Shown here piece by piece: positions 25,009 through 63,336 of a stretch of DNA of 64,000 nucleotides (its first letter is position 1; each line of letters begins with the position of its first letter). The notes under the pieces were generated by a model. The model worked only from the letters and a program-made list of their open reading frames with translations. It did not search any database and had not been told where the DNA came from. A program made the position numbers and the translations under genes. Source of the DNA: Roseiflexus sp. RS-1 (lineage in GTDB: Bacteria > Chloroflexota > Chloroflexia > Chloroflexales > Roseiflexaceae); NCBI RefSeq assembly GCF_000016665.1, contig NC_009523.1, positions 124,001-188,000 of the forward strand, read 5' to 3'.

Positions 25009-25548
25009 TGCCAGATCGTCAGTCGCCGGTTGCGGAGCCTGTTACTGTAGCGAAGTGCAAAATTATCGTGCTACGTGGCGCGAGAAGCGCAGACGTCTGT
25101 TGATGGGTGGCCACGGAGTCTCAGATGCGTCGACCATTGCCTGAGTCTGCCGTGTCGCACAAGATGCCCGCTTGCGGCAACAGGTGCAGCCTTATCCAAC
25201 GGGCCCTGTAAGTGCTGCGCATCCACGCACTGCACCTTAGCGCCTCTGTGTGAGCAGGTCTGATGCATGCGAGCGGCAATTTCGGCAATCTTCCGATCTG
25301 GAGCGGGCGAGATGCCCGCGCACTCGGGACGTACATAAAAAATGCGGATTTAATGCTCAATCTCCATCAGCCCGACGGCTCGTTCGGGATAGCGGATGTA
25401 TAGCAGTTCTCATAGAGGTTGAACCTCCTCGGATGACCGCAGTCACCATCGCGCTCCCCGCGCAGCGACCGCCGTGCATGTCGGTCGGTAAGAGAAGACA
25501 TCCGCCGTCGTCCCCGTCGTCGGGCGTGACCCGCGGCAGTGCGGGCTA
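25009..25548. repeat. Gene-free accessory block with decayed interspersed repeats
   Basis: I see no gene in these 540 bases. They hold a right-end fragment of the MITE-like family (GGATTTAATGCTCAATCTCCAT, about 25346-25367) and a GAGCGGGCGAGATGCCCGCGC hairpin related to the arrays at 27.4 and 40.7 kb. A segment at about 25480-25548 recurs inverted at about 41280-41345. Confidence 0.6.
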
Positions 25549-25664
25549 ATGGTCTTTGAGTAAATAGTCCGGTATAGCCCGCGTAGGCGGGCTTCGCCTT
25601 GGCTAGCCGAGGGCTTCAGCCCCACGGCTAGCGCGGTAGAGCGGATTTAATGCTCAATCTCCAT
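25549..25664 (+). mobile_element. MITE-like element, copy 1 (116 bp)
   Basis: It starts ATGGTCTTTGAGTAAATA and ends AATGCTCAATCTCCAT, imperfect inverted repeats, with two internal hairpins (AGCCCGCGTAGGCGGGCT; AGCCGAGGGCTTCAGCCC). It interrupts GGGCTA/AAGCCC. The uninterrupted form, in reverse orientation, is at about 41273-41290, so this is a filled site next to an empty site in the same window. It has no coding capacity. Confidence 0.8.
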
Positions 25665-25920
25665 AAGCCCTCCCTGAGCGCCTGGAAGCCCCTGCGGGGC
25701 TGGCGTTTCGGTTATCCTTGCCATATGCCGGGAGGACTGGGGTTGATCCAGCCCGCAGGGCTTGCCCGACCTCAGCAAGGGCTTATGGTCTTTGAGGAAA
25801 TAATCCGCCGTAGCCCGCGCAGGCGGGCTTTGCATTCCATAGCCGAGGGCTTATGGACTTTGAATAAATATTCCGTTATACTAATATTCATCCGTGTCAA
25901 GCCTTGCTCAGGAGGTTGCG

Positions 25921-26196
25921 ATGCCGGCACGCCGGACCCTTCACTTGTGCATCGAGGAACGGGAGGCCCTCGAAGACCTGCGCGATCACGCTCCCAAGCC
26001 CTATTTGCGCGAACGGGCGGCGGCATTACTGCTCATCGCGTCCGGCGTACCGCCTGCCGTCGTGGCGCGCGAACGCTTGCTGCGTCCGCGCCATCCGGAA
26101 ACCGTCTCTCGCTGGCTGAATCGCTGGGAAGCCGAGGGCATCGATAGCCTCCCCATCCGGGACGGACGCGGGCGCAAGCCCGCTTTTTCCCCCTGA
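25921..26196 (+). CDS. IS630-like transposase, frame A (N-terminal DNA-binding part)
   Basis: A 91-residue product with an HTH region (YLRERAAALLLIASGVPPAVVA, then PETVSRWLNRWEAEGIDSLP) that binds the terminal repeats. An AGGAGG precedes the ATG. It ends at TGA in the context TTTTTCCCCCTGA (26184-26196), where a shift by +1 on CCC (CCC to CCT) would join frame B exactly at GAC. A full transposase of about 387 residues would result. Confidence 0.8.
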   Translation: MPARRTLHLCIEEREALEDLRDHAPKPYLRERAAALLLIASGVPPAVVARERLLRPRHPETVSRWLNRWEAEGIDSLPIRDGRGRKPAFSP

Positions 26197-27085
26197 CCAC
26201 CATGACCCCGAGACGGCGGCGACTGAGGTGGAGCATCTGGTCCGCCGTGACCCGCGGCAGTGTGGGCTGACCCAGACGCGCTGGACCCTGGACGCCATCC
26301 GCAGCCCGTTGGTGTGGGGACGCGACGCCGCGCTGCGCGGGATCGCCCGCATCCTGGATCGGTTGGGCATCACCTGGCAGCGCGCCCGCAGTCATGGGCA
26401 TAGCCCTGATCCTCACGATCAGGCCAAACTGCAGGAGATTGCGGACGTGGTGGAGGATGCCCGCGCGCACCCCAACCAGGTGGTGACCGTGTATCTGGAT
26501 GAAGTCACGGTCACCCGGCGCCCGACCCTGGCCAACGGGTATGGACGGGCAGGCGCCGATCAGGTGCGGGCGGAACGGAGTCGGGCGACCGATGGTGACC
26601 TGCGCATCGTGGGCAGTTTGGACGTCGTGACGGGCCAGGTGGTCACCCGGCGGGCGAAGACGATTGGCCTGGCGACGCTGGTGCGATTCTACCAGGATCT
26701 GCACGCTGCCTATCCTGAGGCTGAGCGCATCGATGTCATTCTGGATAATTGGCCGGTCCATTTTCATCCGGATGTCCTGGTGGCGCTCGAGCCGCAAACG
26801 ACCCGCTGGGCGTTTTCCCGTCCTGGCAATTGGCCGGCCACGCCCAGTGGACGGGCCGTGCGCCGGGCTGGAGATGTCCGCCTGCCCATCCAACTGATGC
26901 CGTTGCCGACGTATGCGTCGTGGTGCAATCCGATCGAGAAGCTGTGGCGGTGGATGCGTCAGGAGGTCACCCGCGTGCATCGCTGGGCGACGGATCTCGA
27001 TCAGTTGCGCAGCCATCTGGATGCCTTCTTCGCGTCGTTTGCAACCGGCTCGTCAAAGCTTTTACAGTATGTCGGTCTCGGATAG
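26195..27085 (+). CDS. IS630-like transposase, frame B (DDE catalytic part)
   Basis: The 296-residue continuation contains the DDE catalytic triad: Asp in VYLDEVTVT, Asp in VILDNWPVH, and Glu in WCNPIEKLWRWM. The first in-frame internal start is a GTG at 26228, but synthesis as a fusion with frame A by +1 frameshifting is more likely, since an active transposase needs both parts. The DDE core appears intact. Confidence 0.82.
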   Translation, partial: DHHDPETAATEVEHLVRRDPRQCGLTQTRWTLDAIRSPLVWGRDAALRGIARILDRLGITWQRARSHGHSPDPHDQAKLQEIADVVEDARAHPNQVVTVYLDEVTVTRRPTLANGYGRAGADQVRAERSRATDGDLRIVGSLDVVTGQVVTRRAKTIGLATLVRFYQDLHAAYPEAERIDVILDNWPVHFHPDVLVALEPQTTRWAFSRPGNWPATPSGRAVRRAGDVRLPIQLMPLPTYASWCNPIEKLWRWMRQEVTRVHRWATDLDQLRSHLDAFFASFATGSSKLLQYVGLG

Positions 27086-27156
27086 CGGATTATTTATTCA
27101 AAGACCATCAGCCCCACGGCTAGCGCGATAGAGCGGAATAAATGCTCAATCTCCAT

Positions 27157-28316: not shown

Positions 28317-28398
28317 ATGGTCTTTGAATACAAAATCCGCCGTAGCCCGCGCAGGCGGGCTTCGCCTTGCTTAGCCGAGGGCTTCAGCCCGACGGCAA
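28317..28398 (+). repeat. Left half of a MITE-like element
   Basis: ATGGTCTTTGAATACAAAAT at 28317, then the AGCCCGCGCAGGCGGGCT hairpin and GAGGGCTTCAGCCCGACGG; the right terminal repeat is missing. It lies between the small gene and the caspase-STAND gene. The remaining bases up to 28583 contain a TACAAT (28528-28533) that could be a -10 for the large gene. Confidence 0.65.
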
Positions 28399-41105: not shown

Positions 41106-41352
41106 ACGTTGCCCCTTACCTGGATTTCTGGAGCGTTCAATCTTCGCCTCCGGCGGGCTGAAGCCCCGGCTGAGGTCGGGCAAGCCCTGCGGGCTGGATC
41201 AACCCAGGTCCTCCCGGCATATGGCAGGGATACCTGAAACGCCAGCCCCGCAGGGGCTTCCGTGCGCTCAGGGAGGGCTTTAGCCCGCACTGCCGCGGGT
41301 CACGCCCGACGACAGGGACGATGGCGGATGTCTTCTCTTACCGACTGACATA
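41106..41352. repeat. Repeat block holding the empty MITE site
   Basis: The reverse complement closely follows 25480-25780 without MITE copies 1 and 2. It includes GTGCGGGCTAAAGCCCTCC, the uninterrupted form of the sequence split by copy 1. Confidence 0.7.
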
Positions 41353-41467
41353 ATGGAGATTGAGAAATACATCCGGTATGCGCCCTTGCCGTGAGGCTGA
41401 AGCCCTCGGCTATGGAATGCGAAGCCCGCCTGCGCGGGCGAGAGCAGAATAATTACTCAACGAACAT
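41353..41467 (-). mobile_element. MITE-like element, reverse orientation (115 bp)
   Basis: It starts ATGGAGATTGAGAAATACAT and ends AATTACTCAACGAACAT, with internal hairpins GGCTGAAGCC and AGCCCGCCTGCGCGGGC. Its right flank, CATTTCGGTC, is the same sequence that flanks the copy at 62691-62805. Confidence 0.75.
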
Positions 41468-61503: not shown

Positions 61504-61601
61504 ATAGCCGATAATCGATAGCCGATAGCCGATAATCGATAGCCGATAGCCGATAATCGATAGCCGATAATCGATAGCCGATAGCCGATAATCGATAGCC
61601 G
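61504..61601. repeat. 14-unit heptamer array of two variants
   Basis: Fourteen consecutive heptamers are either ATAGCCG (A) or ATAATCG (B), in the order A B A A B A A B A B A A B A. Single A-like units also occur at 61858, 62124 and in the 40.4 and 27.2 kb repeats. Confidence 0.95.
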
Positions 61602-61620
61602 ATAGGCGAGAGGCAAGAGG

Positions 61621-62418
61621 GTCATCATTGGAGTTCACGTTCCGCGCAGGCAGGCTTTGCCCTGGCTAGCCGAGGGCTTCAGCCCGACGGCAAGCGGCGC
61701 ATAGCAGAAGATGGAACGTTCCAGAAAGCGTTCAGCGATTGAAATCGCCTCTGGAAGGCTTTTCGCCGGGCATCCACCTGCGTGGACGCTGCCACGGCGA
61801 CCGCATAGGCGGTCGCCCGGCGCGAAGCGTCCGCTCAGGCGCGGTTTCAACCGCTCATCGATAGCCGATGACCGATAGGCGACAGGGTCATCATTGGAGT
61901 TCGCGTTCCGCGCAGGCGGGCTTTGCCTTAGCTAGCCGAGGGCTTCAGCCCGACGGCAAGCGGCGCATAGCAGAAGATGGAACGTTCCAGAAAGCGTTCA
62001 GCGATTGAAATCGCCTCTGGAAGGCTTTTCGCCGGGCGTCCACCTGCGTGGACGCTGCCACGGCGACCGCATAGGCGGTCGCCCGGCGCGAAGCGTCCGC
62101 TCAGGCGCGGTTTCAACCGCTCATCGATAGCCGATAGGCGAGAGGCAAGAGGGTCATCATTGGAGTTCACGTTCCGCGCAGGCAGGCTTTGCCCTGGCTA
62201 GCCGGGGGCTTCAGCCCGACGGCAAGCGGCGCATAGCAGAAGATGGAACGTTCCAGAAAGCGTTCAGCGATTGAAATCGCCTCTGGAAGGCTTTTCGCCG
62301 GGCGTCCACCTGCGTGGACGCTGCCACGGCGACCGCATAGGCGGTCGCCCGGCGCGAAGCGTCCGCTCAGGCGCGGTTTCAACCGCTCATCGATAGCCGA
62401 TAGGCGAGAGGCAAGAGG
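61621..62418. repeat. Three tandem 266-bp repeats
   Basis: Copies start GTCATCATTGGAGTT at 61621, 61887 and 62153, and the start recurs at 62419. Each includes AGCCGAGGGCTTCAGCCC, GAAACGCTTTCTGG-type (CCAGAAAGCGTTCAGCGATT) and several inverted repeats. Minus-strand frames inside them are near-identical copies and almost certainly not genes. Confidence 0.93.
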
Positions 62419-62690
62419 GTCATCATTGGAGTTCACGTTCCGCGCAGGCGGGCTTTGCCCTGGTTAGCCGAGGGCTTCAGCCCCACGGCTAGCGCAGTAT
62501 AGCGGATTTAATTTTCAACCTCCATCAGCCCGACGGCTCGCGCGGGATAGCGGATTTAATGCTCAATCTCCATCAGCCCGACGGCTCGTGCGGGATAGCG
62601 GATTATAGCGGTTCTCAGATACGTTGACTCCTGTCCGGGTCTGCCGTGTCGTGCGAGGCGCCCGTTTCCGGCAGAGCGTAGACCGAAATT
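62419..62690. repeat. Decayed ends of the MITE-like family
   Basis: GGATTTAATTTTCAACCTCC and GGATTTAATGCTCAATCTCC follow one another at about 62505 and 62543, each followed by CATCAGCCCGACGGCTCG. No gene. Confidence 0.65.
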
Positions 62691-62805
62691 ATGGTCTTTG
62701 AGTAAATAATCCGCCATAGCCCGCGCAGGCGGGCTTTGCATTCCATAGCCGAGGGCTTTAGCCCCACGGCAAGGGCGTATACCGGATTTATTTCTCAATC
62801 TCCAT
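62691..62805 (+). mobile_element. MITE-like element (115 bp)
   Basis: It starts ATGGTCTTTGAGTAAATAAT, has the two internal hairpins, and ends CTCAATCTCCAT. It lies between GACCGAAATT and CATTTCGGTC, so its removal restores a palindrome with nine-base arms. Confidence 0.8.
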
Positions 62806-63336
62806 CATTTCGGTCACCGTGTCTGGCAGCGCGATTCTGGGAGTGTTCAACCCTGTCCAATTAGTTCAACCTCTATGGGAACTGCTATAAATGCTCAATC
62901 TCCATCAGCCCCACGGCTAGCGCGGTATAGCGGATTTAATGCTCAATCTCCATCAGCCCGCATCACGCCCAACGACGGACGATGTCGGATTGCTTCTCTC
63001 GCAGGCAGAAAGTTCAGCGATTGAAATCGCCTCTGGAAGGCTTTTAGCCGGGCCGGGCGTCCACCTGCGTGGACGCTGTCACGGCGACTGCATAGGCGGT
63101 CACCTGGCACGAAGCATCCTCTCAGGCGCGGTTTCAACCGCATGCCTGAGCAGTTACGGCAGAAATTTATTTCGGTCGCCGCGCCCGCAGAGCAAGGCAT
63201 ACTGGCAGACCAGACCTGTACCGCACACACGCACCGCAGCAACGCAACGAGCGCTGCGTTTTCCATCAATTGCTCGCTGCGTCCGCTGTGTCCGTTGTGG
63301 TGAAATGCACATGTTGCAGGCGACTCAGATGTGATG
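62806..63336. repeat. Further repeat debris
   Basis: Contains two more right-end motifs (about 62889 and 62937) and an inverted copy of part of 25395-25425 (GTTCAACCTCTATGGGAACT). It also has a diverged part of the 266-bp unit at about 63012-63142 (AGTTCAGCGATTGAAATCGC). I see no gene. Confidence 0.6.

What the first reader, a model, noticed from the sequence alone, without database searches (positions are those of the whole stretch)
25549..27156. MITE-like family sharing terminal repeats with an IS630-like element, with nesting
Seen: the IS ends (ATGGACTTTGAATAAATA; ATGGTCTTTGAATAAATA) match the left end of the 115-116-bp elements (ATGGTCTTTGAGTAAATA). Removing the IS restores an exact 116-bp element. 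At least four whole copies and many fragments are in this window. The short elements are therefore probably moved by the IS transposase.
Basis: partly seen in the sequence, partly recalled or inferred. Interest (0 to 1): 0.7.

Follow-up and report, generated by a model that had tools for sequence, protein, structure and literature searches.

The report
Self-nesting transposons that split hairpins
A bacterial jumping gene of the mariner-like IS630 group and its hundreds of 116-base short derivatives insert exactly at the mid-point of DNA palindromes without the usual two-base target duplication, and since each derivative carries such a palindrome they stack inside one another like Russian dolls.

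Summary
The 116-bp element, the 1256-bp IS630-like element with matching ends, and an exact 116-bp element on removing the IS are all present. The end motif occurs 348 times in the 5.8-Mb genome (0 in the control). All 12 IS copies, and 48 of 85 elements parsed in 1.66 Mb, sit at one exact position, the centre T-N^N-A of a hairpin inside the MITE; hence the self-nesting (68-bp left halves, 48-bp right halves). Elements elsewhere lie mostly at centres of other palindromes. Uninterrupted copies of the targets, one in this window, show no target duplication and no loss. Eighteen relatives' insertions (Chloroflexota, cyanobacteria, others) and a second MITE family in Cyanosarcina show the same. 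The TA duplication that defines IS630/Tc1-mariner insertion is thus absent, though the transposase passes the IS630 model and its predicted fold matches Mos1. I call it a new variant: IS630-type elements addressed to palindrome or hairpin tips. Recognition of an extruded structure is inferred. Against: 14 of 37 non-nested sites are not clearly palindromic, one orthologous site fits a 2-bp duplication, nested orientation is biased 37:2.

The parts
25549..25664 (+). 116-bp MITE, intact copy, inserted at palindrome GCGGGCT-A^A-AGCCCTCCC
   Evidence: its uninterrupted target lies at 41231-41350 minus
25785..25852 (+). left half (68 bp) of a second MITE copy, split by the IS
25853..27108 (+). IS630-like element, 1256 bp, ends ATGGACTTTGAATAAATATTCCG / ATGGTCTTTGAATAAATAATCCG, inserted at centre GGGCT-T^C-AGCCC of the MITE, no target duplication
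25921..26196 (+). ORF1: helix-turn-helix part of the transposase (HTH_29, HTH_23)
26168..26193 (+). hairpin GCGGGCgcaaGCCCGC followed by T5C5: the slippage site reported for a Roseiflexus IS630 (removes one C, joins ORF1 to ORF2)
   Evidence: PMC5009743 passages
26195..27085 (+). ORF2: DDE catalytic part, D102, D184, E248 of P0001; DDE_3 and NF033545 transpos_IS630 (119.7 bits, cut-off 100)
   Evidence: model matches Mos1 and Sleeping Beauty
27109..27156 (+). right half (48 bp) of the split MITE
25606..25628 (+). landing hairpin GCCGAGGGCTTCAGCCCCACGGC inside the MITE; insertions occur after base 68 of the element (25616)
28317..28396 (+). MITE left part (80 bp), truncated
41353..41467 (-). 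115-bp MITE copy
41231..41350 (-). uninterrupted copy of the target of MITE 25549: 113 of 120 bases identical to the joined flanks without a gap, identical across the junction
62691..62805 (+). 115-bp MITE in palindrome GACCGAAAT-T^C-ATTTCGGTC
62510..62573 (+). right-end halves at 48-bp spacing (left by nested insertions or by half-unit duplication)
62890..62953 (+). right-end halves at 48-bp spacing

Best explanation
An IS630-clade insertion sequence (IS630/Tc1-mariner DDE transposase, two ORFs probably joined by transcriptional slippage) and short non-autonomous elements with related ends insert at the exact dyad centre of DNA palindromes, between the two middle bases of T-N^N-A, with no target duplication and no target loss. 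The 116-bp MITE carries such a palindrome at its own position 68^69, so copies of the MITE and of the IS accumulate inside existing MITEs, building nests in which each new copy supplies the next landing site at the centre. Shown: the position, the missing duplication at hairpin sites, the nesting, the same pattern in relatives. Inferred: that the transposase moves the MITE in trans; that it recognises the extruded hairpin or cruciform rather than a symmetric duplex; that the two strand transfers occur opposite each other (zero stagger) in the loops.
For: 12 of 12 IS copies lie at the MITE centre, in both orientations. In 1,664,000 bp, 85 elements parsed; excision in memory restores 17 further 114-116-bp MITEs in round 2 and 2 in round 3; 48 of 85 at the MITE centre. 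Middle bases at 48 nested junctions TC34 TT7 GC4 CC2 TG1, like the 27 empty centres CCGAGGGCT-NN-AGCCC[CG]ACGG: TC22 TT4 TG1; GGGCT..AGCCC spacer 2 nt in 61 of 68 and no NATN. Of 37 non-nested sites, 23 have >=5 of 7 complementary positions against 1.8% of random positions; complementarity 0.69 at dyad shift 0, 0.21-0.31 at shifts 1-4; sum 222 against permuted mean 139, max 184 in 10,000; 11 targets outside the two repeated palindrome families 61 against mean 29, max 56. Uninterrupted copies of non-nested targets: 269 places with 2-nt spacer, 0 with 4 nt; one in this window. Relatives: 18 insertions, complementarity 0.83-0.94 at positions 2-7, T at -2 in 17 and A at +2 in 17. Cyanosarcina short elements plus IS: 7 of 8 palindromic, with several different palindromes.
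Against: 14 of 37 non-nested sites fall under the 5-of-7 criterion; some are rearranged nests, some look like plain T^A sites. The orthologous site of insertion 4684273 in G001 is 2 bp shorter, as an AT duplication (or an indel) would give; of the other sites compared, one (4614571) keeps an element-free hairpin with a loop 1 nt shorter and the rest are uninformative. Left and right half counts are not always equal, and left halves in some arrays are near identical while right halves differ, so some arrays probably grew by half-unit duplication. Nested MITEs follow the host's orientation in 37 of 39; a simple symmetric target does not predict that. No transposition was observed.
Confidence: 0.8

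Rival explanations
1. Ordinary IS630 insertion at TA with TA duplication; the apparent lack of duplication comes from how the ends are drawn (X-TA-TGG...CCA-TA-Y).
For: Some sites are T^A (5 of 37 non-nested), where the TA reading and the no-duplication reading cannot be told apart; one orthologous site is 2 bp shorter. Another IS630-type copy in the same genome does show it (L217: CTAG with TA on both sides).
Against: Most junctions are T^C, T^T, G^A and so on, not T^A. Empty targets contain exactly NN between the arms in 269 places and never four bases; no GGGCTNATNAGCCC.
Confidence: 0.07
2. The palindromic arms belong to the element (longer terminal inverted repeats), not to the target.
For: In single-copy relatives the arms simply extend the inverted repeat, and annotators would draw them so. 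In G394 three copies share GTGCGTT arms.
Against: Copies of one family have different arms: GGGCT, GACCGAAAT, CCTCCCGAAGT, CACAGGAT, ACGCGGTT, CCCCT and CCCT in G368, several in Cyanosarcina. Uninterrupted target copies exist.
Confidence: 0.04
3. The nests arise from tandem duplication of 68-bp and 48-bp half units, not from insertion.
For: Near-identical left halves in some arrays, unequal left and right counts, same orientation in 37 of 39.
Against: The IS sits at the very same position, in either orientation, 12 times; two-level nests with equal halves lie at palindromic outer sites (for example 4462941, 3652840, 4536890, 2403789); IS630 relatives elsewhere also split palindromes at the centre.
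Confidence: 0.08
4. The MITE is moved by another, now lost transposase; the IS shares only the target preference and part of the ends.
For: The MITE right end matches neither IS end closely; genomes G002, G003 and G009 have short elements and no detected transposase.
Against: The left end is shared (IS right end and many MITE left ends are the same 18-mer ATGGTCTTTGAATAAATA) and the target rule is identical; many open IS copies and many short elements occur together only in G000 among the 40 genomes.
Confidence: 0.3

Closest known systems
IS630 family / Tc1-mariner superfamily (Mos1, Sleeping Beauty)
   Same: HTH plus DDE transposase, over the NF033545 cut-off; predicted model closest to Mos1 and Sleeping Beauty, VIA Z 13.3 over 169 residues rmsd 3.1 and Z 13.2 over 195 residues rmsd 5.2; short inverted repeats; MITEs
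   Different: no TA duplication; insertion at palindrome centres
IS1272 (IS1182 family by recall) stem-loop-replacing transposition, PMC5678879 (abstract, the section on targets, and passages read)
   Same: target is an inverted repeat of any sequence, no target duplication
   Different: IS1272 replaces (deletes) the target stem-loop; here the stem-loop is split at the tip and both arms are kept; different transposase family
REP-targeting IS (IS1397, IS621, ISPpu9 and others), PMC1525189 passages
   Same: insertion into palindromic repeats
   Different: those recognise particular REP families; the paper lists families IS3, IS110, IS4, IS256 and IS5, not IS630; here unrelated palindromes are used
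IS630-linked MITEs: Correia elements and RUP (named as such in PMC2817692 passages)
   Same: short elements related to IS630
   Different: known for TA duplications (recalled); no landing site of their own and no self-nesting that I know of
Roseiflexus IS630 with T5C5 transcriptional slippage (PMC5009743 passages)
   Same: the hairpin GCGGGCgcaaGCCCGC + T5C5 is present letter for letter at 26168-26193, so this IS or a very close copy was already studied
   Different: the passages I read concern expression of the transposase, not its target

Membership tests
IS630 family | transposase over the curated IS630 model cut-off | tested here: met
   NF033545 119.7 bits, cut-off 100, ORF2
IS630 family | DDE triad | tested here: met
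   D102, D184, E248 invariant in 16 aligned proteins; D-to-E spacing 64 here, about 30 shorter in L175 and L177 by the alignment
IS630 family | Tc1-mariner catalytic fold | tested here: met
   model pLDDT 79.2; Foldseek E 5.4e-07 to 4u7b_A Mos1; Z 13.3, rmsd 3.1, 169 aligned, 4mdb; retroviral integrases follow closely (Z 12.8 and below)
IS630 family | TA target with TA duplication | tested here: not met
   three other DDE_3 copies in the genome as control, L217 with clear TA in CTAG
MITE | short, non-coding, many copies, inverted ends, related autonomous element in the genome | tested here: met
   62 of 77 parsed copies are 116 bp, 14 are 115, 1 is 114; 348 end motifs, IS ends included; 12 IS
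MITE | target duplication | tested here: not met
   one orthologous site fits a 2-bp duplication
IS1272-type stem-loop replacement | target stem-loop deleted on insertion | tested here: not met
   both arms kept next to the element; joined flanks equal the empty target
IS1272-type stem-loop replacement | inverted-repeat target, no duplication | tested here: met
REP-targeting IS | one repeated palindrome family as target | tested here: not met
   many unrelated palindromes, including some outside the repeated families

The most novel reading that the evidence does not exclude
A widespread IS630/Tc1-mariner clade has a structure-specific transposase: it recognises extruded hairpins or cruciforms of any sequence and joins both transposon ends opposite each other in the T-NN-A loops, giving clean insertions without target duplication. 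MITEs of this clade carry their own hairpin landing pad, so they form self-feeding, one-target-at-a-time nests that record the order of insertion.
Probability: 0.55. Interest if true: 0.8.

Novelty: new variant of a known kind. Interest (0 to 1): 0.64.

Why it matters
The 2-bp TA duplication is regarded as a constant of IS630/Tc1-mariner transposition. A clade that abandons it and goes to the tips of palindromes would show how a DDE transposase can change its strand-transfer stagger and read DNA shape, would give a marker for in vivo hairpin or cruciform extrusion, and would explain self-stacked repeats in this genus and in cyanobacteria. Flanking palindromes in such elements are easily mis-annotated as longer terminal repeats.

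Tried and rejected
Ordinary TA duplication, arms as part of the element, and half-unit duplication were tested (see rivals). A 2-bp AT duplication (element GG...CC) was rejected at hairpin sites because GGGCTNATNAGCCC is absent, but it remains open for insertion 4684273.

Age order in nests: inner copies are closer to the consensus in 9 of 14 pairs, Wilcoxon p=0.096, not significant. Orientation by replication arm: no clear pattern in six blocks.

Relatives dropped from the junction count: one search examined 20 loci and twelve; 18 went into. Left out because no end pair was resolved, the contig ended or they repeat another row: L193, L198, L200, L203, L205, L196, L197, L086, L174, L176, L178. 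L217, L218 and L225 served as controls. L206 was never examined. Related short elements of G001, G002 and G009 (17 rows) are mixed: some clear palindromes, some not.

Literature searches listed no paper, by title and start of abstract, on IS630 elements at palindrome centres without duplication; only the passages named were read, and subscription papers are mostly not held, so prior description cannot be excluded. Sequence search of solved structures gave no transposase.

Full report
1. Observation. MITE 25549-25664 is 116 bp; the IS 25853-27108 is 1256 bp; the flanking pieces 25785-25852 (68 bp) and 27109-27156 (48 bp) make one 116-bp element. The window belongs to a single-contig genome of 5,801,598 bp; from that size I recall Roseiflexus sp. 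RS-1, which no call confirms. The end motif is found 348 times at up to 2 mismatches, with 0 in the control.

2. The IS. ORF1 carries HTH domains; ORF2 carries DDE_3 and passes the IS630 model. Twelve copies occur in the genome, nine matched whole and three matched in two pieces by the protein search; all twelve are 1256-1258 bp, and the other eleven are 92.0-96.3% identical to the window copy. ORF1 and ORF2 lie in different frames; the hairpin plus T5C5 before the ORF1 stop is the site described for a Roseiflexus IS630, where slippage removes a C (passages of PMC5009743). The model of ORF2 (pLDDT 79.2) matches Mos1 and Sleeping Beauty best.

3. Where it inserts. All 12 IS copies lie between GGGCT-N and N-AGCCC of a MITE, in both orientations relative to it (in the sampled blocks 2 same and 6 opposite of 8). 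In 864 kb, MITE ends are repeatedly 68 bp apart on the left side and 48 bp apart on the right side, as expected if elements insert into one another after base 68. Parsing 1,664,000 bp by removing innermost elements in memory gave 58 MITEs and 8 IS, then 17 restored MITEs, then 2 more; lengths 116 (62), 115 (14), 114 (1). Forty-eight of the 85 insertions are at the MITE centre. The other 37 show arms complementary about the insertion point: 23 of 37 with at least 5 of 7 matches against 1.8% of random positions; the signal vanishes when the axis is shifted by one base. Examples: CGACCTCCCGAAGTGA^ATACTTCGGGAGGTCG, GCACAGGATG^CATCCTGTG, CAGGCACGCGGTTG^AAACCGCGCCTG.

4. No duplication, no loss. Uninterrupted centres contain the same two bases that flank the insertions: TC and TT mostly, in both sets. 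Uninterrupted copies of 17 non-nested junctions give a spacer of 2 bases in 269 places, 4 bases in none, 3 bases in 30 (all from one junction with a 1-bp loss), 1 base in 3 and 5 bases in 2. In this window the target of MITE 25549 exists uninterrupted at 41231-41350, 113 of 120 identical without a gap. A tandem repeat at genome position 2543501 shows filled and empty units side by side (sequence printed). Orthologous sites in relative G001 are few: one keeps an element-free hairpin (loop one base shorter), one is 2 bp shorter than the joined flanks, two are too diverged.

5. The same rule elsewhere. Relatives of the transposase were found in Chloroflexota, cyanobacteria and other bacteria. In the 18 insertions with resolvable ends, positions 2-7 of the flanks are complementary in 83-94%, with T at -2 in 17 and A at +2 in 17; for 15 of them (one per genome) positions 3-8 match in 78 of 90, permuted mean 34.8, maximum 59 in 20,000. 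Cyanosarcina (G425) has 68 end motifs (0 control), short 104-116-bp elements and the IS, with 7 of 8 at palindromes of several sequences. Two-level nesting is also seen in G001 and G009. Of three other DDE_3 (IS630-type) copies in the same genome, L217 shows the classical TA in CTAG, and none shows extended palindromes.

6. How it probably works. The arms vary freely but stay complementary, so what is recognised is likely the fold (hairpin or cruciform) or dyad symmetry, not a sequence. In an extruded cruciform the two strands present T-NN-A loops; joining at the middle of each loop gives exactly the product seen, with no duplication. This step is inferred. The MITE folds well as a single strand (DNA parameters -30.8 kcal/mol, z -4.76) and brings a landing hairpin; each nest offers its newest hairpin at the centre.

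7. What does not fit yet. Nested MITEs keep the host's orientation in 37 of 39, perhaps because the left end prefers T and the right end C of T^C. Some arrays have near-identical left halves and unequal counts, so half units probably also duplicate. Non-palindromic sites exist. Mobilisation of the MITE by this IS is inferred, and some genomes have the MITE without a detected transposase.

8. Known or new. IS1272 goes to stem-loops without duplication but deletes them (PMC5678879: abstract, targets section, passages). REP-targeting IS are known from other families (PMC1525189 passages). I found no description of an IS630 clade with this habit in ten searches of the open library, judged by titles, starts of abstracts and the passages named.

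Noticed in passing
genome places near 551438-552825, 1140832-1142359, 3644258-3645742, 3675390-3676770; short relatives in the window near 25403 and 62885: A transposase gene that looks like IS110 (by its start FIGIDVSKQTLDVAF, recalled, not searched) bounded by TATAGCAGTTCTCA ... TGAGAACTGCTATA sits in the MITE family's subterminal AATA^ATCCG-type sequence in four places; pieces of the same ends occur alone in the window. A second mobile family seems to use the MITE ends as its target.
   Followed up: partly
25575-25598, 25811-25834, 28343-28366 (minus): Rfam CRISPR-DR28 (RF01356) scores over its threshold on the MITE's other hairpin; probably a mis-assignment, since these are dispersed MITE parts and not arrays.
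   Followed up: no
61585-62506: 266-bp tandem repeat, about 3.5 copies (90-98% identical), which contains the MITE-type hairpin GCCGAGGGCTTCAGCCC[CG]ACGGC without the MITE left end.
   Followed up: no
25519-25547 and 41282-41304: Flanks of two MITE copies resemble a stretch inside the IS transposase gene (IS bases 388-416): a shared repeat or a relic of the IS.
   Followed up: partly
G002 loci (L110, L116, L126, L130, L254): Related species G002 carries 125-127-bp variants of the short element, with no transposase match.
   Followed up: no
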